NCBI RefSeq assembly: GCF_000004075.3 | Contig: NC_026657.2 | Location: 806,001-870,000, forward strand | Length of the DNA stretch: 64,000 nucleotides | Origin: Cucumis sativus | Taxonomy: Eukaryota; Streptophyta; Magnoliopsida; Cucurbitales; Cucurbitaceae | Reading direction: 5' to 3' | Part shown: positions 1 through 33,302 of the stretch, piece by piece | Layout: each line of letters begins with the position of its first letter | Position numbering within the stretch: position 1 is the stretch's first letter | The notes under the pieces: model-generated | The model's input: only the letters and a program-made list of their open reading frames with translations | Told to the model about the DNA's origin: nothing | The model's database searches: none | Translations under genes and position numbers: made by a program

Positions 1-2006
<2,006 letters not shown>

Positions 2007-9123: not shown

Positions 9124-12100
9124 ATGGAGCTTCTTTCACGCTGTTCAACTCTCACTCCTCACGCCTCCTCTCTCGGCCTTCCCAATTCTCATGGAAAACC
9201 ATCTAATTTCTTCCCCAAGCTCAAATCCACTCTCTCTTTTCCTTCGGCTTCATCAGTACTCAAAACAACCGCTCTTAAACCCTCCAGAACCCTACCTCCG
9301 CCGTGCTCCGTTATGACGGCTCCTCAGACGCCGGATGCCGCCCGGAGAGGCGCTGAAACTGACGCCATGGGATTGCTTCTCAGGGAGAGGATCGTCTTCT
9401 TGGGGAACAGCATTGATGATTTTGTAGCTGATGCTATTATCAGTCAGCTCTTACTCTTGGATGCCAAGGACTCTACTAAAGATATTAGACTCTTCATTAA
9501 TTCCGCTGGCGGCTCTCTCAGGTATTCATGAGCTGATTTTTCGTGCATAACGCAGTAGATATGGAATATGTGATTTAGGCTTGTTTTTGTTCTTCCCAGA
9601 CGATTTAGGTAACTTGATTTCTACGAATATGCGTTTTTTTGCCTAATTTTGTCGAGATTTTTCTTCACCTGCATCACAAACAGTTAGCCCACTATTTGGT
9701 GCATTCATTCATGTGATGACTCTCGTTCTAGAGTTGACATTAATAAACAACCAGCTAAAATAATGCTTAACCATTATCGAATAGATGGAAAAGAATCAGG
9801 TAAATCTTTGTAGAGATGCATTTTGTTTGAAGTTTGAAACCTTTGGCTCGTATCCACTTGCAAATCTTCTAACCTCCAGCTGAATAATATAAAAGGCAGA
9901 TTGGAAGAACCCTTTTTATCTTCGGTTTCGGGAGGAAAAGACTTAGTTCTTCATTTGGACTATGGCTCACAAGAGGCTAAACACTTGTTGGATTAAAAAG
10001 AAGAACCCATCCATGGCCTTATCTCCGCCTGTTTGCTCTTCTAATCTAATGAAGAAACGCTCGACCATCTTTTATTTTATTGGGAATATGTTGCACAGAA
10101 GATTCACTTGCCATTTTATTTGTCTTGGGCTGGAAACAATTCTACTGATGAAATGAGATGATACATAAAGGTAAACTCATTCAAAAAATTTATCCAGTTG
10201 GATATAAAAGAATTTAAGCTGCATATATTAGAAGTATCCATACTTCAAGTAGGAAGCTTTATTTTTAAAAAAAAATTATTGAGTTCTTTTCATTCTAAAT
10301 CTTCCAAATAACTGCCTTCAACCAATGGGTATTCTATGTTGACCTGAACAGATGATCTATCAGCTGCAAATTTAGCCAATAAAAAATCCCATTTTCTATA
10401 AGGGCCAATTTCTCAAATCAGTACTTCTTTGGGAAAGTGCCAACTCCTCCTTCTATGAGAGTAAGCATGTAGACCTAATCAAAGTTCTTTTGAACAAGTA
10501 AAAATCCAGGCCTTCTTGTTCATTCTCTATGAGATTCTCAGTGGAGGTGGTGGAAGTTGAAGATACCAAAGGTTCCCTAATTACTACAGTATGGTAGTAA
10601 TGCATCTATCATCGTTTACCCGTCTCTCCCTTTTCATTTATGGTAAATTTTGAATAACTTGATAAGGGTTGTGAAAAAGAACTGAATTCAGAATGTATGT
10701 TGTCAAAATGTCTCATATTATTATCTATTTGTATCATGTTTTTCTTTGCATTTTTTAACACTTAGTCCTCACAGTATAAACTTATAATGAAATCATGTAA
10801 TCTATATATGTAATATGCAACCAATCTAATTTTATGCATTGGAAACATTCTAGAGTAATTTAATTTAGATTTCTGTGCTTTTTGGATGACCTTTTGATTA
10901 TCTTCTCTTCGCATCTTTGATGTGCAGCCACTTTCTTTTCTAATGATAAATCTATCATGCACTACAAAACCATAATTGTTCTAAATGTATACTGAAATGT
11001 AACTTAAGGATGCCCGTGAGACTTAAGAGTTGACAACTGAAGAAATTATGTGCTTTGCCTAACTCAGTTCATTTTTCAGAAAATGTTATGTTTTTCAGTT
11101 CCACAACCACTTATCCTCGTGTTGATAAGGAAAACACCTTCCAACTTTCTCGTATCTCAAACCCAGTTTTTCAATTGTCTATCAAACAGTACCTTCTCAG
11201 CCCATTGCCCCACAATTTCGTGCGTGTCAAGCAATCACTTACAATCTCTCCTTTTGTACTAGCAATGGAGTAGATATTGTGAAACACCTAACTCAAAGAT
11301 GGAATTAAACCAGCTATCTTCCTAGATTCTAAGCTCATTTTCCATTTTATAAAGAAAACCCTGTTCCGACGAACCCATTCATCTAGCTAAATAGGGCCAA
11401 GGGCAAAACACAGATTTGCTTAAATAGTTTTATTTGTTTTTTGTATAGCAGAACTTAAAATTTTAGAAGCGGGAGTGTCATATTCACGACTTGTGAATAT
11501 ATGAATCCTCTTGTTATTTGAAGCCTGAATTATTGATTACTAGGCTTTTTAAATAAATAAGTATATTTTGTCTTCCCCTCTCGGTCTTGAGAATTTAGAT
11601 TAAGAGGACAATCAGTGGTACCTGATCTCATCTAGTTTTGCATCATGTTCTTCGTCACTTTGAAAGTTTATATTTTTCTTAGTTATTTGGTGTTTTGTTG
11701 TAGGACATTAGCCTTGATTGACTTTCTTCTATTAATGGTGTTTTTGTTAGTTCTACCATGGCTATCTACGATGTCGTACAGCTTGTGAGGGCTGATGTCT
11801 CCACTATTGCACTAGGCATTGCAGCCTCAACAGCTTCCATAATCCTTGGCGGTGGCACCAAAGGAAAGCGTCTCGCAATGCCTAATGCACGTATTATGGT
11901 TCATCAACCTCTTGGAGGAGCGAGTGGGCTAGCATTGGATGTGGAAATTCAAGCACGCGAAATCATGCAGAACAAGGACAACGTTATAAGAATCATCTCT
12001 GAATTCACTGGCCATCCATTTGAAAAGGTCCAAAAAGATATCGATAGGGATCGTTATATGTCACCCATAGAGGCTGTAGAATATGGATTTATTGATGGAG

Positions 12101-12234
12101 TAATCGACCAAGACAGCATTATACCGCTCATGCCAGTGCCCGATAAAGTGAAAGGAAAATTCAATTATACAGAAGTTATGAAAGATCCCATGAAGTTCTT
12201 GACACCAGACGTTCCTGATGACGAGATATTTTAG
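9124..12234 (+). CDS. CLPP4: ClpP4, plastid ATP-dependent Clp protease proteolytic subunit
   Basis: Two exons, 9124-9521 and 11751-12234, with a GTATTC...TTGTTAG intron of 2.2 kb; 882 nt, 293 aa. Residues 1 to about 62 are Ser/Pro/Leu-rich with few acidic residues, as expected of a chloroplast transit peptide. The mature part is a ClpP fold: LLLRERIVFLG, then ADVSTIALGIAASTAS with catalytic Ser159, MVHQPLGG with His184, and DIDRDRYMSP with Asp233. The spacing of 25 and 49 residues matches E. coli ClpP (97/122/171). The end, FLTPDVPDDEIF, is typical of plant ClpP4. In the plastid stroma ClpP4 joins ClpP3, P5 and P6 in the P ring of the Clp core. Oddity: the usual NSPGG loop reads NSAGG. The ATG at 9124 is the first in frame; upstream there is only a TTG. 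The intron carries a LINE fragment. Confidence 0.96.
9955..10145 (+). mobile_element. Decayed LINE fragment (RT-associated zinc-binding domain) in ClpP4 intron
   Basis: Conceptual translation gives AHKRLNT...SMALSPPVC in one frame from about 9962, and after a frameshift near 10030, NEETLDHLLFYWEYV in another. This order (HKRLNT, LSP..C, LDHLL/F) matches the zinc-binding domain that follows reverse transcriptase in plant LINE-like elements. At least one frameshift and a lost cysteine show it is dead. Orientation is the same as the host gene. The extent beyond these motifs is not defined. Confidence 0.6.
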
Positions 12235-12599
12235 ATTTGGGCGTTCTGGCAAACTTTTCTCTAGGGCTTTGATTTAAATGTTTTACATGTAGGATCTTAT
12301 GTGTAAGCAAAGTCATGGTGGGTGGAAAGGGAAACCAGAATATGATGGAACTTGATGAGCTAATCATCTTTAGAGTTTCAACTTTTAGCGAAATGTCTCT
12401 ACTTACCAGAAGTTAAAAAGGTACTTGGAGTTTGGACTCTTTTCTTTGGCTATGACATTCTTCAAATGAGCAAAATGAGGATGGAAAAATTGGTATCGAT
12501 TTGTATTGGCAGTGTATATTTTTCATACTTTGCTTGATTATCTCTTTCTCCAAACCTCCAAGCATGTTTTTTTTTTTCTTTTTAGTTCAACACAACATA

Positions 12600-13060
12600 A
12601 ACCGATGTGAATCGTCTAGTCTCCTAGTTGAACGTGAGGTGTAAGTTCAACCCAAATAACCGACAACACAGACTATCAAATTCATATTATATAAGTTGAG
12701 TTGAATATTTTTGTTTGGGTTGAGTTGGGTCTCGGAGGTTGAAGATTTTGGTTCAACCTAACTCAAATTAATATATAATATATAATTTATTTAATAAAAG
12801 TAAAGTTAGGAGTATGTTGTTAGCCGATCGGGTAAGAAATAAGTGATTGTATGAAGGTAGAAAGCAAAATGATTGCATAAATGGTTGTTTAGAAAGCTAA
12901 ACGATCATTGGGTTAGAAATGAAAAGAAAAAAAAAAACAAAACAATTCTTGAGAAATTAATTTGGAACTCAACCAACCCGGAAATATGGGTTGGGTTGAC
13001 TCTCGTTCCCAACCCAACTCAACTTGTTTACACTTCTAGTATCTTACCTATCTTTCTCTC
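12600..13060. repeat. GGTTGAGTTGGG-type dispersed repeat
   Basis: Several copies of TTGGGTTGAGTTGGG and its complement CAACCCAACTCAAC cluster here. The outer parts carry related motifs in inverted sense ('gaggtgtaag' left; 'tttacacttctag', complement ctagaagtgtaaa, right). This looks like a non-autonomous element with imperfect ends in the 3' flank of ClpP4. No target duplication was identified, so boundaries are approximate. Confidence 0.4.
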
Positions 13061-14580
13061 TCAAATATCTTTAAACTCGGGTAAGTGGGCATCATGTCGA
13101 CATCCAATCTTAAAGATAAACATAACTTTTTTTTCTTTCTCGATTGTTTACACTCCTTGAGCTTCTAATTCATCAACTCATTCTTTAGTTTCATTTATAA
13201 TTTTATTTCATTAGAGTTTTTATATTTCCATCAACTTTATCGTCCATTTGGATTAAACTAAAAACTATATATTTTTCAACAAATTTATTTTTGTTTAAAT
13301 TCTTTTTCTAATTATTTAAAATACACCTAAAAATCCATTTTAAGTAACTTCCAAATACTTTAATTTTTTTCAAAATAACTTATTTTCTAAATTAAACTTT
13401 TGAAAATGTTATATAAAAACGCCATTATTTATTTTGTAATCTAATTTATCATTTTCAAACTATCCAATTGATCAAAATTTCAACTTCTTGTATGATAGGA
13501 TAAATCATAATTAAATGTATTAAGTCAAACCCCAATAATCCCACGTAATGGAACATATTTTTTTCCCAAATAAAATGACAAATTTCACCTTTTTCAAATT
13601 ACTATATTTTTATGTGAGAGGGAGTTAGTTAGTCAATCACGTCAACTTTTTTTAATTTTGTATCTAATAACTAATAAGAATGAAACAAAGAGAGGCGACG
13701 GCCTATATATGTATAAATATAATTGAATTATAAAAAATTTGTTGATATTGACTATTTTAATTTAGCTTAATATATATAATTTCAGTTTATATATTACATT
13801 GTAATTTAAAAAAAAAAATACCAGATTTTGTATTTTGTTATTTCCATAAATTTAATCATCACAACTAATTTATTATTGATTGATTTTTTAAAAAATTGTC
13901 ATCTATTAACGTTTTTATTTCAAAGTTTATATTAATTATAAAAAAGAAAATGTTATATATAGCAAACAGATGAAATTGTTTAAAAAAATATAACAAAAAT
14001 ATGCAAATAAAAGAAGAGTTTGGATGAATTTTGTTATACTTTGAAAATAGTGTTAATATTTTTTTTTGTTTTTTAAAAATATTAAAATAAATTAAAATGT
14101 TTACAGGTTATATCAAAATTTTGAATTTTATGAGTGTATATCGATGTCACTAATAGAAACATATTGATGTCTATCAATGTCTATTAATGAATCTGAAAAT
14201 TTTGCTATAGATTATAAATATTTTGACAAATATACTATTTTCGATAATTCTCTAATTTTTTTATGGAGAATGTCTCTTTTAAGTATTTATAGATATTTTC
14301 AAATTAAAAAAGAAAATTCTATTTAAGAAAAAGTTGGCTTTTAATTTTTTTTACATTTTAATAAGCTAAAATTGACTCATTTTTCAGGAACTTTGAGTAT
14401 CAATTTAGTCTCTAAATTTTCATCCGTAACTATTACAATTGTCATTTCAATTCTTCAATTTTTTAGTTGTTTATAAAAAATCTCATTAATCTTATTGGCC
14501 ACAATTCTCTGTATTTATAAATATTGAGAAAGTTTTTTTTTTTTAATTTGAAACAATTAAATAATTGAAAATGATTATTT
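13061..14580. other. Intergenic AT-rich spacer
   Basis: About 1.5 kb of low-complexity A/T-rich DNA between ClpP4 and the CYCLOPS leader. No open frame, RNA gene or element could be supported. The final 100 bases presumably act as the CYCLOPS promoter if the leader at 14.6 kb is real. Confidence 0.5.
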
Positions 14581-14606
14581 AATATTTAAAGCCTTCCTTT
14601 GCCGCC

Positions 14607-14690
14607 ATGCTTCAACTGAACAACTGTTTATCCCATGGGAAGCGAAGACCAAGAATTTCTTCATCCAGAGGAGCAAAAGAGCGATGTTAA
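14607..14690 (+). CDS. Upstream ORF 1 in CYCLOPS leader (27 aa)
   Basis: ATG in a near-ideal context (GCCGCCATGC) opens a 27-codon frame ending in TAA at 14688-14690. It is basic (GKRRPRISSSRG). A second frame starts at 14684 inside its last codons. If the leader exon is transcribed, scanning ribosomes should load here first. No homology recognised. Confidence 0.3.
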   Translation: MLQLNNCLSHGKRRPRISSSRGAKERC

Positions 14691-14887
14691 AGATTTCTTT
14701 AAACAATAATTCATTAACAATGGAACATACAAAACCTCAATCGAAGGAAGATTTGGAGAATCTGTACGAGAAACCGCGTAATTCGCTCGTTAATCGAAGG
14801 CGTCGGCTTCTTTCTGGCCTTAGAAATGCCTTCTTCTGCAACAAACGCGAAAGCTCCATTCCAACAGTTTCATATTTGATTATTTGA
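14684..14887 (+). CDS. Upstream ORF 2 in CYCLOPS leader (67 aa)
   Basis: Open frame of 67 codons starting at ATGTTAA, which overlaps the stop of uORF 1. It contains a Lys/Arg-rich centre (NRRRRLLSGLRN) and ends before the donor at 14948. No family recognised. It may be only a chance frame in the leader, but its overlap with uORF 1 is of the type used for termination-reinitiation. Confidence 0.25.
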   Translation: MLKISLNNNSLTMEHTKPQSKEDLENLYEKPRNSLVNRRRRLLSGLRNAFFCNKRESSIPTVSYLII

Positions 14888-15859
14888 ATATAGAAACCCC
14901 TGATATTTGTCATTTTCATTTTCGTCATCACGATCTGGCTCTATCTCGTGAGTACTCTCAATTTCTTCAGTATACATTTTTTTTTGCTTTTTTTTTTTTA
15001 AATTGTTATTATATTGATTGAATAAGTCCATTCTGCTTGTTTGATTGATTGATTGATTAAATATTGTGGATATAGCTTTTCAATTATAACTACGCCCAAT
15101 AGGGAGGAAATTGGGTTTTATAATATATATGTTAAATGACAAATTATGACATTGGAATTTTCAACAAAACCTAATCTTAATTGATGCCTATTCTTTTTAA
15201 ATCATATCTATGTGCCTACTATCTGCTGGGAAATGAGGAATACTATATCCTTTTTGCAGCATCCCTAAATTCTCACTTTTTTATTACGTCTGTTGTTAGT
15301 TCTAAAGTTCTTACCGGCCTAGTTGGTCGTCTGTGATATTGCTTGGACGGTGTTTTGGAGTTTGGTTGTCAACTCTCAATTCATATGAAGTCAATGATTG
15401 TGGTTTGACAGGCTTGTTAGGGGAAGTTCTTATTTCCTTGTCACTATAGTGGAGACATGTTCAATCATAATTTTTGGTTGAATAAATGCTCCTTTTCGGG
15501 TTTGTGAGATTTGACTCGTAGTTTCAAGTGCTGATATCCTTCCAAGGATATTAGAGTCCACAAGCTTGAAGGGCTTCCAATTATTCATCTGGGTAGGAAG
15601 TGTTGAAGCATCTTGCAAAGGATGATTGCTTCTTACTATATGTGCTCTTCAACAAAACTTTTGGGGATCTCAAAAGAGCAAACAGAATAGTCCGTCTCAA
15701 ATTGAGGTTTTTGATATATATATTTTTTTTTTGAATTTAGGAAATTTCATAGGGTAGCCTTAGCAAATTATCCTTTTTAAGCCCTTGTTTTATACGTAGA
15801 ACATAGGCTTCTTTCTGTCTAGAAAATATTCAAACGTTGGTGTTGATATCATCGTGAAT

Positions 15860-18800
15860 ATGGAAGGAAGAGGTGTATCAGAATTATACAGAAACGCAAG
15901 TGAGGAGCTATTTCTTAAATCTTGGGTAGAAAATTCAATTGGAATGTCAACGCCAACCATGGAGATGATGGGATTTAAAAATCTTTCTCAGAGCTTCCGT
16001 ACAGATAGTGAGGAGCTTTTTAAAAGCTGGCTAACAAATGGAGAGGCAAGCAGCTCTATTACCTTTTTGGCTTTGTTAACTTGTGGTTGAAAACAAAAAT
16101 AAAGCTAAAGCCTAATCTGTTCAACAATCGTGGTTAAAAAAAATCATCTATTCGAGAATTGATAATATTATCGTTATTGTTTATTAAGTTTTACCAGGTT
16201 CACTGACTAGCATGGAAATGGTAATAGTTTGGTTCATTCCCCTGGTTGGAGTTTTTTATATGTGGTCATATTAATGCTGTGCCTTTTCCTATTACAAAGG
16301 GATCTAGTATTTCTAATGATAATATTTCTGTGAAAAAAATTCACAATGGGAGGGCTCAGTTGTAGCTTGCGCTGTTTATACTTTTAAACAAATTTGCAAA
16401 GAAAAGAAACCTCACTGAGAAGAGACAAATCAGCAGATGCTCTAGTGGGCACGAATGACCAAACTCTTGATTTCCAAGATCATATTTGTGATGTTTCATG
16501 TGAAAGAAAAGCCAAAGCGAACTGTTGGATAATTGAATCTTGATGCGACTTCATGTTCATACTTCCCTGTGTCTTGGAAATATGTCTGATGTGACTTAGA
16601 AGAAATCTGGACAGATCAATATATTTTGGAGGCATGATAATTTTGTTGTAATATTTTTTTGTTCTCGAAGAAGTATAGCTCTGTCATCAGACAATTCTAG
16701 ATAATTCAATTAGATTTATTTGGATAAATTACTGTTATCCAAATAAAAGGGTTCAGTAAGAAGCATTAAACATTCAACGTTGTTAACTTGTTTGTATAAC
16801 ACACTAACGTTTCTATAGCTTTTCATTGTGCTTGATTGATTTTTCTCTTGACTGTATCTTAAAATCACCTTCGTGAGAACTTGTATGAATATTTTTGTTG
16901 ATACATTTCTTTTTTCAGAATGTCAACAGCACATCAGGCCCACCTTATCGCACTCGACAGACATCAAAAAGGTTGGTGTGTTAAATTAGTACAGCTACAA
17001 CAAAAGGCTTATGAGGTTGAATATGTCAGATGCTTTGTCTTGATCATGATTGGTTCTGAGTTGTCTAATTAAATATCAGTAACAGTAATTAGTTTTATTT
17101 AGATGCTTGGTACTGATAGTTACAAATAAGGTTGAAACAAAAGCATCTGTTTGTTTTGGACAATGAGTAGAACTTTTTTTCTCTTTATGGTCAGGGCTGA
17201 TCTGCATAGTGATCTTCATGAACCCCTTTATACAACAATTGATAGATAAAATTGGATTTATCTGCCACAGTGAACTGGGCAAATTTAGTACTTAGTTCAC
17301 CTGTAAAAATATGGAGTTCAACAGACTCTGGCACATGGAACTTCTTTTCGGATCAAATGTGATAGACTCGCCAAAATATAAGTTCTAAATATAAAATCAG
17401 AAAAGAAAATGGGAGTTCCATATAGGGAAAATTAGCATTGTTGTATGTAAATTTTTATATTTCCTTTTGGTAAGATCATTCTGAGATCAATTTTCAAAAG
17501 GTTTTTCACCAAGAACATGGTAGGTATACTCACAACAGTTTATTGTCTTAGAGAAAGGGGCTGTGTTATTAAGGTAGGTGTCATTTTTCAAGTGTAATTG
17601 TCAATAAATTGTGATGATCATTAAGTTGCGCCATTCAAGTTTTAAAAGAGTGTCCTAGCTTAGAGACGTGGCTCTCATCGTCTTCCATTCCCTTTGTGCA
17701 GGATTTCCTCTGAGATTGTTGATCTGTCTAGTCCTCAGTATGTGGGAAAGCATCAAAAGAGAATAAGCAATGAAGGCACCTCTACAGTTGATGATATCCC
17801 AGGAGTTCATCAGCAAGCGTTCAGGTTTGCTCTTCAATTTTTTTGAACACAGCTCTAATGCTATTGGCAATATTTCATGGGAGTTTGTTTTTACCTCAAA
17901 TTTCGTCTGTTGGATGATTTATATGTTTTGACCTTTTGAACTTCTTCCAGGAACGTTGCGGAAAGTGAAGTCCAAGGTAGTAACCTATATCTTGCTAAGG
18001 TTTGTTAATCTTCTCTTCGAAACTTGAGGTAATAAAGCATCACAACCTTTTAATATCTCGGTTTTTTTTTTGCAGGCATGGTTCCATAGTTCTCAACCTA
18101 TGACAAGAAGTCGTTCATCTGAGCTAAGGTAATCATTGTATGGACTAATCTTTCACCATGATGATATTGAAAGTTTTTTTAGATGTATATTCTAATTTAA
18201 AGACTCGAGAATATTTCAAGTTTTTTTCCCTTGACAGAAATTACCAAAACTTGATTTCAGAATCCAAATTGAAATTGTAAATTTATACGTTATGGTCAAG
18301 AAACAGAAGTTTCATTTACAAGAGAGAGAATATGGAAAAGGGGAGATGAGATGCCCCACCCATCACGGGTTATAAAAAAGACTGACTAAATCCAAAAAAA
18401 TATGTCCTGATTAGTTTCTTGATCATGAAAAATTCTAGCATTTATTTTCTTTCAAATCATAGTCTCTAGAGAAGGCTATACACCATTGGACCAAAGGATA
18501 TTTTCATGAGTCTATTCAAACTCAACAATTTCCCTGTTGGGATGTGAATGCTCCACATATGAACTCATTTTTGAATAAAAATTTGTTGTGTTGGGACATT
18601 TTTATAAACGCAAGCTTGTGATGAATTAATGAGTTTGTAAAAGTTTCAATTATGCGGGGGAACTTATACTTGCCTGTTCTTCATTGTCTTATTAATGAAT
18701 GCTATCTAGGAGGAGGTATGCTGCAATGCAAAGTAATCAAAGCTTATTTGGTATGGAGTCCGTGTATGACTTGTCCGGGCATGGAATCAATTCCATGAAA

Positions 18801-21800
18801 CTAGATATTGCAAATTCGCAGAGTTTCAATGACATTTCTACTTGTGAAGTTCCAAACCAGCCTGCAACATTTGTATCCCCATCCAATTCATCGTCATCAA
18901 TATTCAATACACCTAACATGTATGACGTAGATAAAATTTCTTCTGTTGTAAACATGCTAAAGGGCACATTAGAACGGAAAAAGCTAAATAACCAGATTGA
19001 TAAAGAGGCACCGGAGGATAGTTCAAACGCACATTTTTGTGCTCAAGAAACTATTGGCAACCCTAGTTTCAATAGAGGTAGCGACAATTATATACATCCA
19101 ATACCAAACAGTTTTCATGACTTCTCTCCTGTTCAAGTCAAGGATAGTAGAATTTTAGAAACGGTTGAGGTATCAGCAGATCTTGGTTTTGAAGCTTTTG
19201 TAAATCCTGTAAATCCCATCCAGTCAGGCAGAGTTTCTCAAGAACCTTCTCAAAGTGAATCTTCTGCTGCAGCAGCAATTGTTTCATCCGGGTTTGAAGC
19301 ATGTGATGGTCCTAGCAATTCAAATCAGACTCATAGCAACGGTGAGAGCTCAAGGAAACAGGTTGCAGGCAGTCGGGGTTTAGAAAATGAATCTCGATCT
19401 AAAGGTAACCAATATATGCTGTGTTTTTCTATCGTTGGTGATTTCTACTCTGACCTTGTTGGCCTTGTACATGGATGCCTATCTGGTGATAATTTTAGAT
19501 TTTTCCTAGCTCAAGGAAACGGTTTTTTTTATTATTAAGTATGTTTCATTTTATGGAACTGCAGATTTCAGAGAGAGAATAATAGACAACTTAAAAGACG
19601 ATAGAAAGGTGCACCCTTTTTCGATATGGTTAATTTTACAAATTAAGCTATTTAAATTTATAGACATGACTCATAATAAGCTTCTTTTGCTGTGCAGAGG
19701 GGGAGTCTAGTTCGTTATGGGTCCGTAACATCAGCTGCTTCTGGTAATTACTTATGTTTTAAGCTACTGATATATACGTATGATTTAACCTATGAGACAT
19801 CCAGTAAAATTGGAATGATACATAGAAGACTTGCCTAGCAGAAGGATAAACCTATGCATTTCCTGTTAGAGGCCTCAGATTATGAACAAAAGAGTTTCTC
19901 TTTTTCTTTTCTTTTTTTAAAGAAATCAAAACTTTCATTAAGAAACATGAAAAGATATACTGGGGCATACTGAATAATAGCCCACACAAGAAGAGCCTCA
20001 ACCTACAAAAAGTCTTCTAGTCCAAAAAGACTAAAAAAACAGAACACCTAACTGATAATTACAAAAGACCTTAGACCACCGCTCACCAGGAAATACTAAT
20101 ATTTTCCCAAAGAATGTCCCAAGACCGTTAACCCCCTCTATATATCCTGCTATTTTTCAGCCAAACACAGCACAAAATTACAGATGAGTCCTCCTAATGT
20201 AACATTCTAAATTAATTCTATTTTGCTGAATGATGCTTCTATTTAGTAACATCTAGAGACGTTTATTATTACAATCACCTTCCTGGGAAGTAGGGAACAA
20301 CTGACTTGCAGAAAGCATGGATTACTTTAAGAATGATAATGTGCTTAACCTTTATTTCTTTCTAAGTTTATTGTTGCTTAATATTTTGTTGGATGTTCTG
20401 AGGTTGTTATTGATTAATAATACAAGCAAAATACCTTTTATAACCAATAAAATTCTGGCAGTGGACAAAGGGGATCCCACGAAAAAGCGCCGGGTGGAGC
20501 GATCACGAAAGTATGTTAAAGATCTCTTCATACCGGGGACGGTATTCGTTTTCTTACCCATGTTGTTTCTAGAATTTCAATCTCTGTTGCTAGCTTTCTA
20601 CTAGAGTGAAATGTTGTTTATGTATTTGGGAAAAGAGAATTACGCTTGTATTTGGGTGTTATCATGAAATTTGAGCAAGAAACTTGTTCATGCTTATGAT
20701 GACAGAATTCAATACTCGAAATTGATTAGATGCAAATTTAGGTTTAATGGTCACCAATTTGGATAAAGTGACAGGCTATTCTATTATTGTTTCGAATTTG
20801 TGTGCAAATCTTAACTCTCAACTCATTCTCAAACACTGTGGAAGTGCAGAATGGCGGAGGCGAAGGAGAGAAATATGACACCAACTATTCCATCGGATAT
20901 ACAATCAGTTATGAAGCGCTGTGAAACTCTTGAGAAGGAAGTGCGGTCACTAAAACTCAATTTGTCCTTTATGAATAGGTAACAGCACCAATTATATTAA
21001 CTCTGTTTCAAGTTCCAACAGAATATTAGAGGTATTTAAGCTTATTACTATTTCTTCTACTTTTAATATTTGAAAAAAGGAAAAAAAATCAGTTATACCC
21101 CTAAAATTCAGGTAGTATAAACCAAATCTCCAAACTAATTATTATGAATTAAAATCTTAATATTATGAATTAAAATCTTAATATTTTATTGACTGAACTA
21201 AGTTGATTTAAATCAAATCAAGTAAAAATGGCTCTAACTTCGCAAAAGTTGAAGGTTTAAATAAATTCAATTATTAGTTTAGAGTTTTAATCCATAAAAC
21301 CACTACTCAAAATTTAAGAGTATGATTTTTTCTCATTTATATGGTTGTCGAGCTTTTGTGAGTCCGATAAGATTTCATATTTTATGATAACAACACATCT
21401 ACTAATTGCATCCAAATGGAACAAAATTATATTTAAATGTATCTGAAAATTTATATTTCGCATGGAATATTATCATTATTTGAATTGGTTTGGAATGATT
21501 TTTTTTAAGGGGAAAAAAGTTGTGTTTGTAAAGCATGTAAAAACTCAATCTAAACCAACCTCTTCTGTCATGTATGTAATAATTTGGTATTACACAATGA
21601 TGACTTGAGTTCTGATGTATTAACTGTTATAAAAGCTTATACAGCATGATGACATTCTGTTTGCTGAAAGGGGAATAATTCAGCTGTTGAAATTTTCTTC
21701 TGATTCTAGTTTTCTACCACATTTTCGAGACATTGACTTCATTCGTCTCATCTCTTGCTTTTGATGATTTCAAACTAAAAAGATTTAAGGAGCAAGTTCT

Positions 21801-21939
21801 TGATACTTAATGCAGGAAGGATTCTGAACAGACTAAGCAAATAGAGGATCTTCAAAAGCAGAATGACGATTTGGCAGATGAAAAAGAACGCTTACTTGAA
21901 GAGATTGAAAGGATTATTTCAGAAACTGGAAGAATGTAA
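15860..21939 (+). CDS. CYCLOPS: CYCLOPS / IPD3, common symbiosis transcription factor
   Basis: Eleven coding exons: 15860-16045, 16919-16971, 17702-17824, 17951-17999, 18076-18128, 18710-19404, 19565-19608, 19698-19743, 20462-20510, 20850-20978, 21816-21939; 1551 nt, 516 aa, all frames continuous. CYCLOPS binds DNA and is phosphorylated by the nuclear kinase CCaMK to switch on mycorrhizal and nodulation genes. Seen here: the conserved N-terminus (SEELFLKSW, PTMEMMGFKNLSQSFR) with Ser50 in RTDSEELF, matching Lotus Ser50. An RxxS site in TRSRSSELRRRY has Ser151, probably equivalent to Lotus Ser154. A Ser-rich segment SPSNSSSSIFNT is followed by MLKGTLERKKL. A basic NLS KKRRVERSRK lies at 424-433 and a C-terminal coiled coil at about 455-516. 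Length matches known orthologs (about 510-520 aa). Intron 1 uses a GC donor. Start chosen by conservation of MEGRG. Confidence 0.96.
16046..16051 (+). other. GC-AG intron donor of CYCLOPS intron 1
   Basis: Exon 1 ends GGA GAG and the intron begins GCAAGC, close to the MAG|GCAAGT consensus of plant GC-AG introns. The acceptor is TTTTTCAG at 16918. Using it gives NGE|NVNSTSG, which lines up with NGE|GYNSSS of Lotus CYCLOPS. The next possible GT (near 16076) would put the following exons out of frame. Confidence 0.8.
19905..20215. repeat. LINE-tail-like dispersed repeat in CYCLOPS intron 8
   Basis: Begins after a T-rich tract with 'actttcattaagaaacatga', then 'gggcatac', 'agcccacacaag', 'taattacaaaagacctta'. 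This order recalls a dispersed segment often seen antisense in legume and cucurbit introns, probably derived from LINE 3' ends. Recognition is from memory of the pattern; no coding frame remains. Confidence 0.35.
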
Positions 21940-23359
21940 GAGTTATTATTGACCTTTAATTGGACTATGAGACTCTATACTTTACTCAAATTATGATGTT
22001 AAGGCTAAGCTTAACTATAAGAAAAACTTCATGAAGGGTCTAACAGTTATTTATTTGCATATGTAGTTTTGGAACATAACTTCTCCTTTCACCTATAATG
22101 TAACTCTCAATAACTTCACAAGCATATTGTTAATTGGTTATTTGATACTTGAGAGTTGAGAAATGTTTGATTATCCAAAACATTCAGTGACCAAAGACAA
22201 GTAGGTGGCAGATGATTGTATTTTGTTTCAATCAGTTACCATAATGTAAAGCTCATAATTTGTGTTGTATATTCTTGGTGTTTTCGGTTTGGCGCATTGG
22301 TTAAAGAGTTCTTTTTTATGTCCCAGTGTTTGAGTTCAATTAAATGCACTTCAACTAATCTTACAAAACAATCCGTCAGACTCTACAAGATTTGAGTGTC
22401 AAGAAAGCTCGAATAAATATCAATTTGTTGACACATAGCTACTATATATTGAATCCCCGAATTCTTAGTCATTTATCCATACTATATTACCTTTCTAGCA
22501 GGTTAAAAAATAACTTTTGATTTCCTAAATTTTTACCAGAATAATAATTTAGTTCCTAAACTTGACAAATTAGTTTGATAACTTTCAAATGTATGAAAAT
22601 TTAATTCCTATTGTAATAATTTTATTAATTTCAATTATGTCAACGAGTTTAAAGTTAACAATCTCATTACATTTTAATAGGTATTTTTTTTTAATCTAAA
22701 GACTAATTTGTTAGAAAATTTTAGATTAAAACTATATATAAAAAGATACCCTTGAACTTTAGTCAAAGTTCGTAATATCATCATCTCTCTGTACCTTTTG
22801 AAATGACCAAGAGACAAATTGCTCCACTAATTAAAAACAAAAACTGATGGGGTAATTAGCTAATCTTTTAGTTGCGATAATTTTACTTAGCTAAGTTCAA
22901 GTTAACACACATATATAAACAGATCAATATGACATTCATGATTAAATTGGAACCCTCAATCAAAATTACAATATAAATTATGCTCTCCAAGTAAAAAGAG
23001 AATGTCAAGATAAGAAAAATCCTTAGCCATACTTTCCATTTTAGGAAGAAAGTGTTACCTTTTGAAGTGGGAATATAAAATAGCAAACCCTGTCCACAAA
23101 ACTTGAGATAGTTTATGTACTTGTGTGTAAGGTAAATCCATATTCTTCTTTTGTATAAAATTTTCACATATGAAGAAGTTACAACGTTATCTCATCTCAT
23201 CAATAAGGACATCATACACATTTTTCTACAAACAGCCGTAATAGGATAATTTCTAACCAACCAATTATCGGGTGTCGTATCGATCCACTGGAAAAAGGCT
23301 ACGTTTACTTTTCACTTATCTCAAATTTTTTAAACTCCACAGTCCAAACTTTCATATGA
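21940..23359. other. Spacer between convergent CYCLOPS and the 303-aa membrane gene
   Basis: AT-rich, no supported gene. It contains a possible tRNA-derived SINE head (22290-22338, listed separately). The edges should hold both 3' UTRs. Confidence 0.5.
22285..22345 (+). mobile_element. Possible tRNA-derived SINE head
   Basis: TGGCGCATTGG at 22290-22300 resembles a pol III A box (TRGYnnAnnGG) and GTTTGAGTTCA at 22328-22338 resembles a B box, about 28 bp apart, as in tRNA-derived SINEs. No clear 3' tail or target duplication was located. Confidence 0.25.
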
Positions 23360-25949: not shown

Positions 25950-25984
<35 letters not shown>

Positions 25985-27915
25985 GTTGTCAAGCTCCATA
26001 ATTTGATTTCTACTTTCCACTCGAAAAGCATCCAACAAGCAATCTCAAATCTAGCAAATACCCACCCAACAAGGTTTATCCTGACTCTTGGGCCAAAACT
26101 TTAAGGAGGAATGGTGATAAAGGTGAATGAACACTAGATACAAGGATCCATTCCCCAAAACCCACTCGACAATTCTCCTAAAAAGGTGAACTCAAGTTTT
26201 CCCTGAAGAAGGGATTTTTTAAAAACGCCTTAAAATAGGATAAGAAACATACTTACAACTTGATTCCACGTAGGGTCATCATAACCATTCAGCTAGCAGA
26301 GCCTTGTAAAATAAATTTCAAATTACTTAGACCCAACCCTCCTAGGCCAATCAATCATGACACTACCTCCCACCTAATCGGATGAGTATCCCCTCCCTCA
26401 TCAACATTTTCCAACAGAAATTTGTTCATAGTTTTCTCAAGGTTCTAAACAAAGACAAGAATGTTAAACACAAGCAGCAAGTAAGCCAGGTTCCTACATA
26501 AAACCAATAATGTGTGAAGTGTTTTTTTTAATTGTATTAATTGGATAAATCTTTGAGAGGTCCAGGTCCTAATTTCTTAAAAATGGGACGCAACCATGTC
26601 ATTGTTGTGTCATATCATATCTATGTCCCATGTTGTCGCCATACTTCATAGCTTCCCTAAAATGTTCAAAGACTTCTAAAGGAACAAATTCCATAATATT
26701 GACCAAAAAATATAGCAAAATAACATGTAAATAAGAAGCAACCCTAGAATTAATGAATAAGATATTAAGACAATGTATATATAAAAGAATGTATCAAAAT
26801 TCATTGATGAGTCATGAGCATGAAATGAAGAAACGCAAATCTTCAACTTCGTTAGATATTTAATGTCATCTTGTGATGTCTCATAAAACCAATTCATAAT
26901 GGCACAGGGTTATTGGCATGAGGTAAATATTAAGTTGTGTAATGAAGTGGAAATGCCAAAGATATACAGATGAGAAGAATTCACTCTAACCTTGAACACT
27001 GACGCCCAATAGTAATCATAACGGCATCTAAACTTATTTCTTTCATAGGGGTAGAAGACATTCTTGGCTTTATAATTCAGTAGCCCAAGTTCACAAACCT
27101 TGGATGACCTAAGGTCCACACCTGCCAAAAGAAAATTCACTTAAGAACAGATAGTGAAGCCAACTGTCTCTTTTCAGAGAATATTAAAAACCCCACGTTT
27201 ATGAGAGTTTACAGCACTTAAAACCCCAAGTTTATTATGAATCAAAAGTTTTAAACTCTAAATAATTTCTAATCCTTCCCCTGATCAAGATGATAATGTT
27301 GCACATTCAGAATACTGTCGTTTCTGTTATATGGTCACCGATATCTTACTTAGTTTTTCTCTTGTCCATAAAACGGAGTCAATTCTAAGCTAAGTCTGTA
27401 CCCATATAACTCCATCCACTAACTCAATAATGAGATCATTGTTTACAAAATTAAATAATGGTTATATCCGTAGCTGGATTTACAAGAAGATATACAGACC
27501 AATCTTATTACTGTCAGTTACAAATCATCCTGAGATTATCATTTATAAACACCTAGAATGATAGAACCTACTATTTCAATCTCAGATAGTCTCAAATTCA
27601 GCATTCAGCAGCACGTCCCCATCACTTACTAAACCTAAACTATCAAAATTATTTGAAAACAAACCAAAATAGAAGACGTAAAAAAAAAAAAAAAAACTCA
27701 CTGCTGGAAACAATCTTGCACTGAGAACGCAGAGAAATGGGACTAGTAATCGAAGAATTGGCGACAAAAACAGCAACTAAACTCAACGATAGAGTCACAA
27801 CAAAGAATGAAACTACTGGAAGCAAAAGCGCGGCACACCATCGCATAGTTACAGCTAGAAAACCTCTCTTCGTCGTCTTTCCAGAGGTAGAGACCTCGTC
27901 GTCCTCAGAATCCAT
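23360..27915 (-). CDS. Plant membrane protein of unknown function (303 aa)
   Basis: Five exons on the complement: 27915-27702, 27121-26991, 25300-25175, 25015-24888, 23672-23360; 912 nt, 303 aa, every junction GT-AG and in frame. Residues 1-20 are polar and acidic/basic; one hydrophobic segment lies at about 27-52. The middle (about 72-195) is soluble with aromatic and Cys-containing motifs: YPYERNKFRCRYDYYW, CRPNFGAAWL, YDCWYSSG. Two more hydrophobic stretches are at about 222-251 and 265-282, and the tail is short and polar. This suggests a signal-anchored protein with a cysteine-containing extracytoplasmic domain and C-terminal membrane hairpin. I recognise the sequence as a conserved plant type but cannot name it. 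Introns 2 and 4 are long (1.7 and 1.2 kb) and carry repeat debris including a 29-base G run. Head-to-head with RPA70 across 1.6 kb. Confidence 0.85.
25697..25935. repeat. Diverged direct repeat in membrane-gene intron 2
   Basis: The phrase 'tagattattcaaggcagg' with 'aaataacctctaagaca' and 'atcaatccaatgctccc' near 25705-25770 recurs with small changes near 25870-25930. A following phrase 'tttgatttctagtttccac' recurs near 26000. The offset is about 165 bp. Most likely a local duplication within older repeat debris. Confidence 0.55.
25954..25982 (+). repeat. Poly(G) run of 29
   Basis: Twenty-nine consecutive G on the plus strand (C run in the pre-mRNA of the minus-strand membrane gene) inside its intron 2. 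Such long G homopolymers are rare in AT-rich plant DNA and difficult to sequence, so the exact count is uncertain. Confidence 0.95.
26150..26500 (-). mobile_element. LINE-like remnant (antisense on plus strand)
   Basis: The complement of about 26330-26400 translates in part as IDWPRRVG, reminiscent of the region after plant LINE reverse transcriptase in which a 'W..C.P...GGLG' motif recurs. Stops interrupt the frame. Only a weak family resemblance, but it agrees with the repeated texture of this intron. Confidence 0.3.
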
Positions 27916-28191
27916 CAGATTACTGAAATTGAAAACTAATCACTCTAATTTCTGTGATGTACAGCACGAAGTTCTAGGTTGTGAAGAGACGAAATCTCCG
28001 GCCACCGGAAACATCTATCCGGTGATCGGAGTCCCTTTGACCAATTGAAGGAATAGACTTTATTTTGCTGAAGCGATTGGGAAACGATCGACTTTTTTTT
28101 TCTTTATTTCTTTTCTTTTCTTTTCCTTTTTTTGGGACTTTATGAATGTTTAGAACTTCATAAGATATTTACAAAACCATATGTACGTCAA

Positions 28192-28201
28192 GCCACGTGG
28201 C
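28192..28201. promoter_or_regulatory. G-box palindrome upstream of membrane gene
   Basis: GCCACGTGGC, a perfect 10-bp palindrome containing the CACGTG core, lies 277 bp upstream of the membrane-gene ATG (minus strand) and 1.3 kb upstream of RPA70. bZIP and bHLH factors bind this core in plants. Confidence 0.45.
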
Positions 28202-29159
28202 CTTTATGGCTTTTTTCATTCTTTAAATATATGCAATTTTTGTTTGGTATAGTTTCTAAAAATAACCAAATAAATTAAAATATTTATGAACTTTAACAAT
28301 TTTAGGATAGAAATTTATAGATTTTATTGTTAATTATTTATAAAATTTGAAATTTTATTATATGTTGTAAAAATTTTATCAAATTTACTATTTTAAAAAA
28401 TATGTTTATAAATATATATAAAAACATATATACGCACACACTTTTTTTTCTCAAGTTTTGTTTGATGTGTCAATTTGGGAAGTTTCAAATTAATACATTG
28501 AGTGCATAAAATTCTTTAATAGACGTGAAAAACAAAATAGGAGAATATGAAATTTATTGATAAATGTACAAATTTTCTTGCGAACACTATCAAATTTGAG
28601 TTTTAAAATATTACATATGAGGTTGTTTTGAATTTGGCTCTAATGTTTCAAATTATAAATTATTATAATGTTACCCTTTATGTTAGAGTTTTATTTTTAA
28701 TTTGAAACAAATATATTCTCTTAGTTTTGATTTCTATAATATCTAGAAACCAAATAAAAACTATAGCCAAAGTCTAAGTATAGAGATGTATATTTTTATT
28801 AATAAACAAATTTTGAAACTAAATTTAATGTACTATTTACTAGCAACTTACTCTTGTGTTACATTTTAAATCATTATTATTACTTAATCAATTTTGTTTA
28901 AAAAAATTAGAGAAATCGTAATAAACAAAAGATTTGACAAAATATTGACTCTCATTTTCTCGTTTTGTTGTATGAAATGTAAATAGTTTGTCAATTTTTT
29001 ATCTCTTATTTAAATGGAGAAACGACTAAATTCACATTTTAACATAAAATAAAAGTTTACAATTTATTTTTAACCAATTATTTCCACACAAAAGAAGAGA
29101 ATATTTTAAACATAAAATGCAAGTTTATGAGCTAAAATGGATTAAAAATGTAAGTGTTG

Positions 29160-29167
29160 ACACGTGG
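29160..29167 (+). promoter_or_regulatory. ABRE/G-box in RPA70 promoter
   Basis: ACACGTGG about 70 bp upstream of the TATA box of RPA70, followed by AACGTGACACG. Matches the ABRE/G-box class by sequence only. Confidence 0.4.
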
Positions 29168-29236
29168 AACGTGACACGAGGGATCACGATTGGGGATGCG
29201 TATCGTGGAAGCTGGAAGGGATACAATTGTAATTTT

Positions 29237-29244
29237 TATAAAAG
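29237..29244 (+). promoter_or_regulatory. TATA box of RPA70
   Basis: TATAAAAG placed 261 bp before the ATG, predicting transcription start around 29268-29275 and a leader of about 230 nt with no obvious intron. Confidence 0.55.
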
Positions 29245-29284
29245 GCCTTCATGTGTTTTGCTATAATTAATAATTGTAATAGAT

Positions 29285-29292
29285 TTTCGCGG
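29285..29292 (+). promoter_or_regulatory. E2F-like site near RPA70 start
   Basis: TTTCGCGG fits the degenerate E2F consensus WTTSSCSS and lies close to the predicted transcription start of a DNA replication gene, where E2F control is expected. A second GC motif, TGGCGCTTCCC, follows about 25 bp later. Confidence 0.4.
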
Positions 29293-29504
29293 TTTCCCTC
29301 GCAAATTCATGGCGCTTCCCTCACTCCACTTTCTCTCTAGGGTTTTAAACTTTTTGTAACTCATTTTCTCTAATCTCTCGTTTCCTGTCGATTCCACATT
29401 CTCGGATTCAATTCCCATTCCTTCGATTGAAGTTTTAATCTTCCAAGGAAAAAAAAAACTAAATTCTTTGCTGGGGTGTTCGAGTTTCGTTACCATTTCT
29501 TGAA

Positions 29505-32500
29505 ATGGCAGCGTCAATGGCGTCGTCTAAGCTAACGGAAGGAGCAGTGATGGTGATATGCAAGAGGGAATCGTCTGCTGAGACGTTCCAGCCGATTCTA
29601 CAAGTGATTGATTTGAAATTGGTTAACACTTCGCAACAATCAGGTAGCGAGAGGTTCAGATTGTTGGTTTCTGATGGAACCCATTTCCAGCAAGGAATGC
29701 TGGGCACTCAGCTCAACGAATTGGTTAAGTCTGGGAAGTTACAGAAAGGTTCTATCGTTCGACTGCGGCAGTATGTTTGTAACCCCGTTCAAGAACGCCT
29801 GTAAGTCTTTCTGATAAACTGAATCTGTTAAAGTTCGATATTTGTTTGCTTTTTGGACAGAAGATTGTTTGGAATCGGCGTGTAGTTTAAAGTGATGGAA
29901 GCTAGTGTTCCATTATTTAAATTTCGAAATTTGATTGCTGGGAACTACTTGAGTGCAGATTGTGTGTATATTTGAAGTTTACTTCTCTTTTCATTTTGGC
30001 ATCTTTCTTTCTTTTGTTTTCTGATGATAAGATATAAGCCATATCAGTTATGAAAAATAGGAGCAAAGCAGATAGGAAATCTCTCCTCGTTGATTTCTTT
30101 TCATTATATCCTGTGCTTCCTAACTTTTAAAGCTAGGGACTAGATGAAGAGTGTGGATTTTCTCTTTTGAGAGACTCCACTAAAAGAATCACCCTTGTGA
30201 TTTATTTCTCCAATATTCGAGAAGATACTTTGAGAGAAGATCGAGAAGGAAAATTTTATTGAATGACCATCCCAGATTACGAATAATCTATGCTGTATGA
30301 TCATCATTGTAGTTCAAAACCACCACTCAATTTCTATTGCTTCAATGATCAATATCTTCCTTAAGTTTGCTAGGAAAACAACGTTAGGATGTAAAATGTC
30401 AACCAGGGAGTGAAAGGCTCGTCTGTTTTCACAAAACTTGATTTTCAATCCATCACGTAACACTTGCAAGGGCCCTTCTCCATCATCGTGTATTTAAACA
30501 TAGTAGATCAAGTGCCCCTTGATGAACCTGCTAAGAAATTTGCTAGTGGATCAACCCTATTGTATAATTGCCATCAATACCATGCCTACTTTTTTTCAAC
30601 CTCTCAAGTAAATCTCCTCTTCCATTTTTAAAGATAAGAAACGTCTTTATTTTAAGTTTCTAACCCAGATGAACCATTCTGGGTTTATTCTTTTGTTGTT
30701 TGTTGATGTCTAACGTTCAATTGTTAGTGTACAATTTTCCTGAAGAGTTTCGTGAGCATTTCTTCTATTAAGTATTACGGCCTTAAAGGTTGTTTATTCA
30801 ACTGAGTCTACAAAAAAACACATGTATCAAGGTTGTTTTACTGTTTCCTTTTTGAATGCTACCGAGTTTGCCTTTGAAGAGATGATTTATTGCTGATCCA
30901 TAATTATATATATTGCTCCTTGTTTGTGCTCTCTTACTCTTCTTTATATTAATTTTTTGGGGGGAGGTAATATTTTACATTCTTTGTATAACTTGTTAAT
31001 TTTCAACCACAGGATTATAATTGTCATTGAGTTGGATGTGATAGAGGAAATGTGTGACATTATTGGTGAACCTGTATCAGCCACAAGATCGTCAGCTAAT
31101 GCATTAAGTGGAAACCCCCTACCCTCTGTGGGGGGTCTGGGGGCTTCACCTGGTAGTGGAATGATTGGTAAGGGAAATGTATCGAGTGCGTCTTTTGAAC
31201 AGCCTAAAGTGAATCAATCACATGTACCACACATGGGATCTTATTCTAATCCTCCTGAGACTGGAAGATTCTCTGCATCAATTGCGCCTCCTTCTTACTC
31301 TAAGACAGATTCTGGATCAAGATTTAATGGGCCATCTCCTTTAACTGGATCATATGGTGATCAGAAGATGGCATATCACAACAGCGGGTCAGATATTCCC
31401 AGGCCACCTCTAAATTCTAATGCCTATGCCCGTCCTCAGCCAATATATCAGCAGCCTCCTTCAATGTACAGTAACAGAGGACCAATAGCAAAAAATGAAG
31501 CTGCCCCAAGGATAATGCCTATTTCTGCTCTGAACCCTTACCAAGGTAGGTGGACAATAAAGGCTCGAGTTACTTCAAAAGGAGAACTTAGACACTACAA
31601 CAATCCTCGTGGTGACGGGAAAGTATTTTCATTTGATTTACTCGATGCTTACCGTGGAGAAATACGAGTAACATGCTTCAATACAGTAGCTGATCAGTTT
31701 TACAACCAAATTGAATCTGGTAAAGTCTACTTCATTTCTAAAGGAAGCCTGAAACCTGCTCAAAAGAACTTTAACCATCTCAAAAATGACTATGAAATAT
31801 TTCTTGAAAACACATCAACAATCCAACCTTGCTTTGAGGATGACCAATCAATCCCCCAGCAGCAGTTTCATTTCCATCAGATTGGTGAGATTGAAGGCAT
31901 GGACAGCAACAGTGTTGTAGATGTAATTGGTGTTGTTTCTTCCATTAATCCTGCAACTTCTTTGATGAGAAAAAATGGTACTGAGACTCAGAAGAGATCC
32001 CTTCAGTTGAAAGATATGTCTGGCCGAAGTGTTGAATTGACTCTTTGGGGGAACTTCTGTCAAGCGGAAGGGCAAAGATTGCAAAATATGTGTGACTCGG
32101 GGTTGTTCCCAGTTTTGGCCGTGAAATCTAGTAGAGTAAGCGACTTCAATGGGAAGGCAGTGGGAACCATTTCAACAAGTCAGCTCTTTATAGAGCCAGA
32201 TTTCCCCGAGGCTCATTCACTGAGAGAGTGGTTTGAAAGGGAAGGGAGGAGTACTCTTTCTGTCTCTATATCCAGGGAAGTTGCTAGTGTGGGTAGGACA
32301 GATGTCAGGAAGACCATATCTCAAATTAAAGATGAGAGGTTAGGAACCTCTGAGAAGCCAGATTGGATCACGGTTAGTGCAACTGTTTCATTTATTAAGG
32401 TTGACAGTTTCTGCTACACAGCATGTCCTATCATGATCGGGGACCGACAATGTAGCAAAAAAGTTACAAATAATGGAGATGGAAAATGGAGATGTGACAG

Positions 32501-33302
32501 GTGTGATCAGTCTGTTGACGAATGTGACTACAGGTACATACTCCAGCTGCAAATACAGGATCATACTGGCTTAACTTGGGTAACTGCCTTTCAAGAAGGT
32601 GGTGAGGAGATCATGGGCATACCTGCAAAAAGATTGTATTATTTGAAGTATGAAGAGCAAGATGATGAGAAATTTGCAGAAATCATCCGGAAGGTTCTTT
32701 TTACAAAATTTATAATGAAGTTGAAAATAAAGGAAGAGACTTTTAGTGATGAACAGAGAGTAAGATCAACAGTGGTAAAAGCAGAAAGCATTAATTTTTC
32801 AAGCGAATCCAGGTTTCTTCTAAATTTGATGGAAAAACTCAAGCCAGAGAACAGTAGTTCTGCTACCCCAAAAGCAGAAAGCACCATACATAATTTCGGT
32901 TTTCGTGACACTGCTTCTGAAAATATTGGTGGTGGACAGTTCGTGTCACCCATTCGAAATAGTACCAATTTCAGCAGAGAATATGGTACACCCAACCAAG
33001 GTGTTCAGTATGGGAACCAGTACAGTAGCTCTAGGCCTTCTCCATCCACACCGCTTAACTCGAACACATACTGCAACAGCTGTGGGGGTTCTGGCCACAG
33101 CTCAACGAACTGCCCGAGTATCATGAGTGGTCCTGCACTGTCTGTTGGAGGTGGGATGTATTCAAATCAAGCTTCTGGCCCTTCGGGTGGTACCTCCGGT
33201 GAATGCTTCAAATGCCATCAAACTGGGCATTGGGCTAGGGATTGCCCTGGCTTGGCCAATGTCCCTCCAGCTTATGGTAACCGTGGCTTCACGGCTAGGT
33301 GA
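29505..33302 (+). CDS. RPA1C: Replication protein A 70-kDa subunit, CCHC-bearing (RPA70C/E type)
   Basis: Two exons, 29505-29800 and 31013-33302; 2586 nt, 861 aa. The join in a split Leu codon restores QERLIIIVIELDVI. RPA70 is the large subunit of the single-stranded-DNA-binding heterotrimer for replication, recombination and repair. Domains seen: RPA1N (about 8-105); a Gly/Ser/Pro linker; OB fold DBD-A from about 267 (PISALNPYQGRWTIKARVTS); DBD-B (about 390-490); DBD-C with zinc ligands C570, C579, C593, C596 (CPIMIGDRQC...WRCDRC). Two C-terminal zinc knuckles follow: C786-x2-C-x4-H-x4-C (CNSCGGSGHSSTNC) and C830-x2-C-x4-H-x4-C (CFKCHQTGHWARDC). The knuckles distinguish the plant RPA1C/E group, which is linked to DNA repair. 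Length fits Arabidopsis RPA70C (about 850 aa). The in-frame ATG at 30924 is within the intron and not used. Symbol given by group, orthology not proven. Confidence 0.93.

What the first reader, a model, noticed from the sequence alone, without database searches (positions are those of the whole stretch)
9124..33302. CYCLOPS sits between CLPP4 and RPA70, which are adjacent in Arabidopsis
Here the order is CLPP4, CYCLOPS, a 303-aa membrane gene, RPA70 (C/E type), a 358-aa gene, then a CDKF;4-like kinase. From memory of the Arabidopsis map, CLPP4 is At5g45390, RPA70C is At5g45400, the 358-aa protein resembles At5g45410, and the kinase resembles At5g45430, all consecutive or nearly so. Arabidopsis lacks CYCLOPS along with mycorrhiza. 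The window therefore appears to show the ancestral interval, and implies that CYCLOPS and its membrane-protein neighbour left a pocket between CLPP4 and RPA70C in the Brassicaceae lineage. The membrane gene's fate there would tell whether this was one deletion.
Basis: partly seen in the sequence, partly recalled or inferred. Interest (0 to 1): 0.75.

Follow-up and report, generated by a model that had tools for sequence, protein, structure and literature searches.

The report
Mycorrhiza gene CYCLOPS in conserved block
A plant genome, very probably cucumber, keeps the mycorrhiza gene CYCLOPS in an old gene neighbourhood whose other members survive in Arabidopsis, and published gene numbers suggest that Arabidopsis lost CYCLOPS separately from its membrane-protein neighbour, which still sits beside its old partner on another chromosome.

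Summary
The gene order is real: CLPP4 (+), CYCLOPS (+), a 303-aa three-span membrane gene (-), an RPA1C-type RPA70 (+), a 351-aa gene (-) and, further right, a MAK/LF4-like kinase (+). The genome is very probably cucumber. Papers give CLPP4 = AT5G45390, RPA1C = AT5G45400 and a kinase = AT5G45430.

Its tomato counterpart Solyc08g075770 is also next to CYCLOPS and resembles AT4G19140. That is one gene number from RPA1E, AT4G19130, the Brassicaceae-only duplicate of RPA1C. The kinases AT4G19110/AT5G45430 look like retained duplicates of the last genome duplication. So the membrane gene was probably not lost; it survives on the chr4 twin of the block. Loss of symbiosis genes is dated before that duplication (PMC4102449). 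The two absences from chr5 are most likely separate events.

That symbiosis genes are missing from their syntenic blocks in Brassicales is published. Order and loss are known; the two-event reading is a small new inference. No Arabidopsis sequence could be aligned.

The parts
9124..12234 (+). CLPP4-type Clp protease subunit; exons 9124-9521 and 11751-12234, 293 aa
   Evidence: open model; Pfam CLP_protease E 2.9e-70
15860..21939 (+). CYCLOPS/IPD3, 10 exons, 496 aa, intact; border of exons 1 and 2 uncertain
   Evidence: spliced alignment to recalled Lotus CYCLOPS, 299 of 514 columns identical; open model; no second copy found in the genome
23360..27915 (-). Three-span membrane protein, 5 exons, 303 aa; counterpart of tomato Solyc08g075770 and, by inference, Arabidopsis AT4G19140
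   Evidence: open model with three hydrophobic regions and all three published motifs (motifs); no second copy found
29505..33302 (+). RPA70 of the RPA1C group, exons 29505-29800 and 31013-33302, 861 aa
   Evidence: Pfam Rep_fac-A_C, REPA_OB_2, zf-CCHC; two CCHC motifs 30 aa apart
34958..36829 (-).
   Evidence: open model; no Pfam match; second copy on C5
50285..53833 (+). MAK/LF4-like protein kinase, rough model; AT5G45430/AT4G19110 counterpart by recall and position
   Evidence: draft model, with false exons upstream; Pfam Pkinase E 1.4e-39; own-genome matches at C3:856907-859830

Best explanation
The window shows an old eudicot gene block with an intact CYCLOPS, the transcription factor switched on by the calcium-decoding kinase CCaMK during mycorrhiza formation. 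On the Arabidopsis side I infer three steps. First, CYCLOPS was lost in a Brassicales ancestor that had given up mycorrhiza, before Cleomaceae and Brassicaceae split, while its neighbours stayed. Second, the block without CYCLOPS (CLPP4, membrane gene, RPA1C, AT5G45410-like gene, kinase) was doubled by the last genome duplication. Third, ordinary gene loss between the twins left CLPP4, RPA1C, AT5G45410 and the kinase AT5G45430 on chr5, and the kinase AT4G19110, RPA1E (AT4G19130) and the membrane gene (AT4G19140) on chr4. The absences of CYCLOPS and of the membrane gene from the chr5 pocket are thus two events of different age. Shown: the window models, and the gene numbers and statements in the papers cited. 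Inferred: adjacency from gene numbers, and the order of events.
For: Window gene order and open models. AtRPA1C = AT5G45400, AtRPA1E = AT4G19130, RPA1E found only in Brassicaceae. CLPP4 = AT5G45390. AT5G45430/AT4G19110: 'synteny and homology suggest they are retained recent duplicates'. Tomato Solyc08g075770 is 301 aa, five exons, three spans, adjacent to CYCLOPS and similar to AT4G19140; the window gene has 303 aa, five exons, three hydrophobic regions and all three of its motifs. In cowpea the counterparts of AT5G45400 and AT4G19140, Vigun02g101800 and Vigun02g101900, are neighbours about 270 bp apart. Symbiosis-specific genes are missing from conserved blocks in four non-host Brassicales; since Cleomaceae, which do not share the last duplication, also lack them, the authors place the loss before it. 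CCaMK is present in this genome.
Against: No Arabidopsis, Tarenaya or papaya DNA could be aligned; adjacency rests on gene numbers. The tomato-AT4G19140 similarity is called 'moderate' with data not shown, though cowpea annotation agrees. The paper's IPD3 block (Table S1, Text S1 of PMC4102449) is in supplements that could not be opened. A dead CYCLOPS remnant could have stayed in place and gone together with the membrane gene from chr5 later. In tomato the membrane gene's other neighbour is a UFM1 gene, not RPA70, and in rice the RPA1C and membrane-gene counterparts have codes on different chromosomes, so the block is not intact everywhere.
Confidence: 0.8

Rival explanations
1. One deletion: CYCLOPS (or its dead remnant) and the membrane gene were removed together from the chr5 copy after the last genome duplication, and the chr4 copy lost only its CYCLOPS.
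For: The two genes are neighbours in the window and in tomato, and both are absent, by gene number, between AT5G45390 and AT5G45400. In tomato one induced deletion did remove both.
Against: Symbiosis-specific genes are already absent in Cleomaceae, which lack the last duplication, so a working CYCLOPS would have to be lost independently there and on chr4. Only a remnant could still have been taken along.
Confidence: 0.13
2. AT4G19140 is not the true counterpart of the window's membrane gene, or came to sit beside RPA1E by chance; the real counterpart was lost.
For: The tomato paper calls the similarity moderate and shows no data; I could not align the proteins.
Against: Cowpea annotation independently pairs the gene next to RPA1C with AT4G19140; tomato has one copy only and this genome too. 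Landing beside the duplicate of its old neighbour by chance is unlikely.
Confidence: 0.05
3. CYCLOPS is the newcomer: it was inserted between CLPP4 and the membrane gene in the lineage of the window's plant, and the Arabidopsis order is the older one.
For: In rice the RPA1C and membrane-gene counterparts carry codes on different chromosomes, so the block is not universal.
Against: CYCLOPS and the membrane gene are neighbours in tomato too, a distant eudicot; symbiosis-specific genes are said to sit in conserved blocks in grape, poplar, peach and papaya.
Confidence: 0.02

Closest known systems
Delaux et al. 2014, symbiosis genes missing from syntenic blocks in non-host Brassicales (PMC4102449)
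   Same: Same phenomenon: hosts keep the genes in conserved blocks and non-host Brassicales lack them there; IPD3 is among the genes queried.
   Different: The parts of the main text that I saw do not name the genes flanking IPD3 or the fate of the membrane neighbour; Table S1 and Text S1 may, and could not be opened.
Tomato Rmc locus (PMC6003170; Larkan 2013 seen only as a reference)
   Same: CYCLOPS next to the same kind of three-span membrane gene, Solyc08g075770.
   Different: The membrane gene's other neighbour there is a UFM1 gene; the tomato loss is an induced deletion disrupting five genes, not an evolutionary one.
Arabidopsis regions AT5G45390-AT5G45430 and AT4G19110-AT4G19140
   Same: Between them they hold CLPP4, RPA1C/E, the kinase pair and the membrane gene.
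   Different: No CYCLOPS; the genes are divided between two chromosomes.

Membership tests
CYCLOPS/IPD3 | Full-length relative of legume CYCLOPS with C-terminal coiled coil | tested here: met
   299 of 514 columns identical to Lotus CYCLOPS as recalled; the only Pfam hit is Cnn_1N, below its cut-off (19.3 against 28.5 bits), over the C-terminal part. The coiled coil itself was not computed.
CYCLOPS/IPD3 | The two serines phosphorylated by CCaMK (S50 and S154 in Lotus, recalled) | tested here: met
   RTDSEELF at aa 47 and MTRSRSSELR at aa 138; the role of the serines is recalled, S50 also appears in PMC10874911
CYCLOPS/IPD3 | Needed for mycorrhiza in this species | not testable with these tools
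   CCaMK is present in the genome; no phenotype data
RPA1C group of RPA70 | C-terminal extension with CCHC zinc knuckles, two about 30 aa apart in most non-Brassicaceae (PMC4731521) | tested here: met
   Two CCHC motifs, 30 aa apart (criterion)
Solyc08g075770 / AT4G19140 membrane protein | About 300 aa, five exons, three spans, motifs VD[LIV]R[SV][SA]K[VTI]C, [ERGK][TSV]Y, CRP[NDSVE]F[GSAD] | tested here: met
   303 aa, five exons, three hydrophobic regions, all three motifs (criteria)
Solyc08g075770 / AT4G19140 membrane protein | Reciprocal best match with AT4G19140 | not testable with these tools
   No Arabidopsis sequence held
CLPP4 | ClpP with Ser-His-Asp triad, and closest to P4 among CLPP3/4/5/6 | tested here: inconclusive
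   Triad stretches present, so ClpP rather than ClpR; best solved relative is 7eko chain C (231.8 bits, next 199), whose subunit name was not shown. The assignment to P4 rests on recall and position.
AT5G45410 family | Sequence match to AT5G45410 | not testable with these tools
   No Pfam match and no Arabidopsis sequence; recalled only

The most novel reading that the evidence does not exclude
CYCLOPS was lost from this block on its own, leaving both neighbours in place, before the last Brassicaceae genome duplication; the membrane gene left the chr5 copy only afterwards. The membrane gene - RPA70 pair has stayed together in cucumber, cowpea and on Arabidopsis chr4. If so, the CYCLOPS loss is dated against the duplication, and its scar can be looked for between CLPP4 and the membrane gene in Cleomaceae.
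Probability: 0.75. Interest if true: 0.4.

Novelty: already known. Interest (0 to 1): 0.3.

Why it matters
It answers, from print, the question the finding left open, and corrects the tempting story of one deletion taking out a symbiosis gene and its neighbour. It also says where to look for the physical scar of CYCLOPS loss: between CLPP4 and the membrane gene in Cleomaceae and other non-host Brassicales. The membrane gene is the reported Fusarium-tolerance candidate of the tomato Rmc locus, so its survival in non-mycorrhizal Arabidopsis argues that its job does not depend on mycorrhiza.

Tried and rejected
Ab initio models from a small codon-usage script gave false extra exons in CLPP4, CYCLOPS, RPA70, the membrane gene and the kinase at some settings. 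The training set held 11 in-frame stops (a frame slip in at least one segment), so I kept models that were open, GT-AG-spliced and agreed with family motifs; the 303-aa membrane model is one of three outputs (329, 303 and 253 aa), chosen because it joins the conserved exons and fits the published five-exon gene. One search printed its result and then stopped with an error while saving a file.

A pattern search for the CYCLOPS start in the own genome found nothing; the real start differs from the pattern. CYCLOPS + CLPP4 + synteny: 0 papers. Five Arabidopsis codes, at least two together: 1 paper. Four tomato codes around CYCLOPS: 16 papers, all for Solyc08g075770. IPD3, RPA1C, RPA70C, CLPP4, 'Tfw locus', Solyc08g075770, at least two: 3 papers, none joining IPD3 to CLPP4 or RPA70. 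AT4G19140: 2 papers. The lupin genome paper lists an IPD3 gene; the passages shown do not describe its block.

I considered that the second copy of the 351-aa gene on C5 marks a duplicate of the whole block. CLPP4, CYCLOPS, the membrane gene, RPA70 and the kinase gave no listed match near it. The membrane protein and CYCLOPS have no relative among solved structures by sequence. Rfam and tRNA scans of the window were empty.

Full report
What is there. The window lies at C3:806001-870000 of a 226.6-Mb genome in 88 contigs. Contig lengths (C1 32.9, C2 24.8, C3 40.9, C4 26.8, C5 31.9, C6 31.1 Mb) match what I recall for cucumber, Cucumis sativus. The species name is an inference.

The genes. From left to right: CLPP4 (+, 9124-12234), CYCLOPS (+, 15860-21939), a 303-aa membrane gene (-, 27915-23360), RPA70 (+, 29505-33302), a 351-aa gene (-, 36829-34958), and a MAK/LF4-like kinase (+, about 50.3-53.8 kb, rough model). 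The first five are open with GT-AG introns. CYCLOPS and the membrane gene face each other tail to tail; the membrane gene and RPA70 stand head to head, 1,589 bases between their start codons. CYCLOPS shows no decay: ten exons, 496 aa, and both serine stretches that CCaMK phosphorylates in Lotus (recalled).

Copy number. The membrane gene gives five matches in the genome, all its own exons. CYCLOPS gives six, all its own. CLPP4 gives 16, of which two are its own; the other 14 are at most 59% identical. The long exon of RPA70 gives five matches at three loci: the window, C2 (65%, a match that stops before the zinc-knuckle end) and C1 (35-49%). The window RPA70 has two CCHC knuckles 30 aa apart, as PMC4731521 describes for RPA1C of tomato, cucumber and maize. 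The 351-aa gene has a second copy on C5 (70-79%).

Arabidopsis side, from papers. CLPP4 is AT5G45390. RPA1C is AT5G45400 and RPA1E is AT4G19130; RPA1E was found only in Brassicaceae and is read as a duplicate of RPA1C. AT5G45430 and AT4G19110 are kinases which 'synteny and homology suggest' are retained recent duplicates. So AT5G45390-AT5G45430 and AT4G19110-AT4G19140 are, by inference, twin blocks from the last whole-genome duplication.

Fate of the membrane gene. In tomato, Solyc08g075770 is adjacent to CYCLOPS, found once in the genome, 301 aa, five exons, three spans, and similar to AT4G19140; the authors state that it is present in non-mycorrhizal Arabidopsis. The window gene has the same make-up (303 aa, five exons, three hydrophobic regions, all three motifs). 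In cowpea the neighbours Vigun02g101800 and Vigun02g101900 are matched to AT5G45400 and AT4G19140. AT4G19140 is the next number after RPA1E. The simplest reading is that the old membrane gene - RPA70 pair survives on Arabidopsis chr4, while chr5 kept only RPA1C.

Order of events. [quoted passage not shown] PMC4585188 names CYCLOPS among the missing genes, citing that work. The membrane gene, by contrast, was beside RPA70 when the block was duplicated, if the chr4 reading is right. Hence two events. What this does not exclude: a dead CYCLOPS remnant that lingered and went with the membrane gene from chr5 later, or an independent CYCLOPS loss in Cleomaceae.

Limits. No Arabidopsis, Cleomaceae or papaya DNA was available; adjacency is read from gene numbers, which can hide later-added genes. 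AT5G45410 as counterpart of the 351-aa gene is recalled only. In rice the RPA1C and membrane-gene counterparts carry codes on different chromosomes, so the block is supported here for eudicots only. In tomato the membrane gene's second neighbour is UFM1. The supplement with the published IPD3 block could not be opened.

Verdict. Observation confirmed; interpretation partly supported. The gene loss from conserved blocks is published; the separation of the two absences is a modest new inference, which I did not find in print in the searches.

Noticed in passing
window 1-675: A near-perfect AAT array of about 224 copies, 98% matches, at the left edge.
   Followed up: no
window 2007-2561 (-), an earlier exon perhaps near 5544-5839: A ribosomal protein L28 gene, probably organellar: Pfam Ribosomal_L28 E 1.4e-15 on the last exon, no Pfam match on the possible earlier one.
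   Followed up: no
window about 55497-57326 (-): A BREVIS RADIX-like gene with BRX_N and two BRX matches, right of the kinase.
   Followed up: no
window 38000-48000: A 10-kb AT-rich stretch (GC 23-28%) between the 351-aa gene and the kinase, where Arabidopsis numbering has AT5G45420; no long ORF stands out, but only one ORF at its edge was put to Pfam.
   Followed up: partly
L042, L044, L046 (C5:20957564-20959209): A second copy of the 351-aa gene, 70-79% identical, with no listed match of the other block members nearby.
   Followed up: partly
window 27915-29505: The membrane gene and RPA70 are head to head here; in cowpea the pair is about 270 bp apart. A shared promoter might help keep them together; cowpea strands were not seen.
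   Followed up: no
cowpea Vu02 (PMC9832699, no window coordinates): The cowpea RPA1C - membrane gene pair sits among RGA4-type resistance genes in an aphid-resistance region.
   Followed up: no
PMC10346619 against PMC6003170 (no window coordinates): A review says that knocking out Solyc08g075770 gave Fusarium resistance, whereas the original abstract reports susceptible knock-outs.
   Followed up: no
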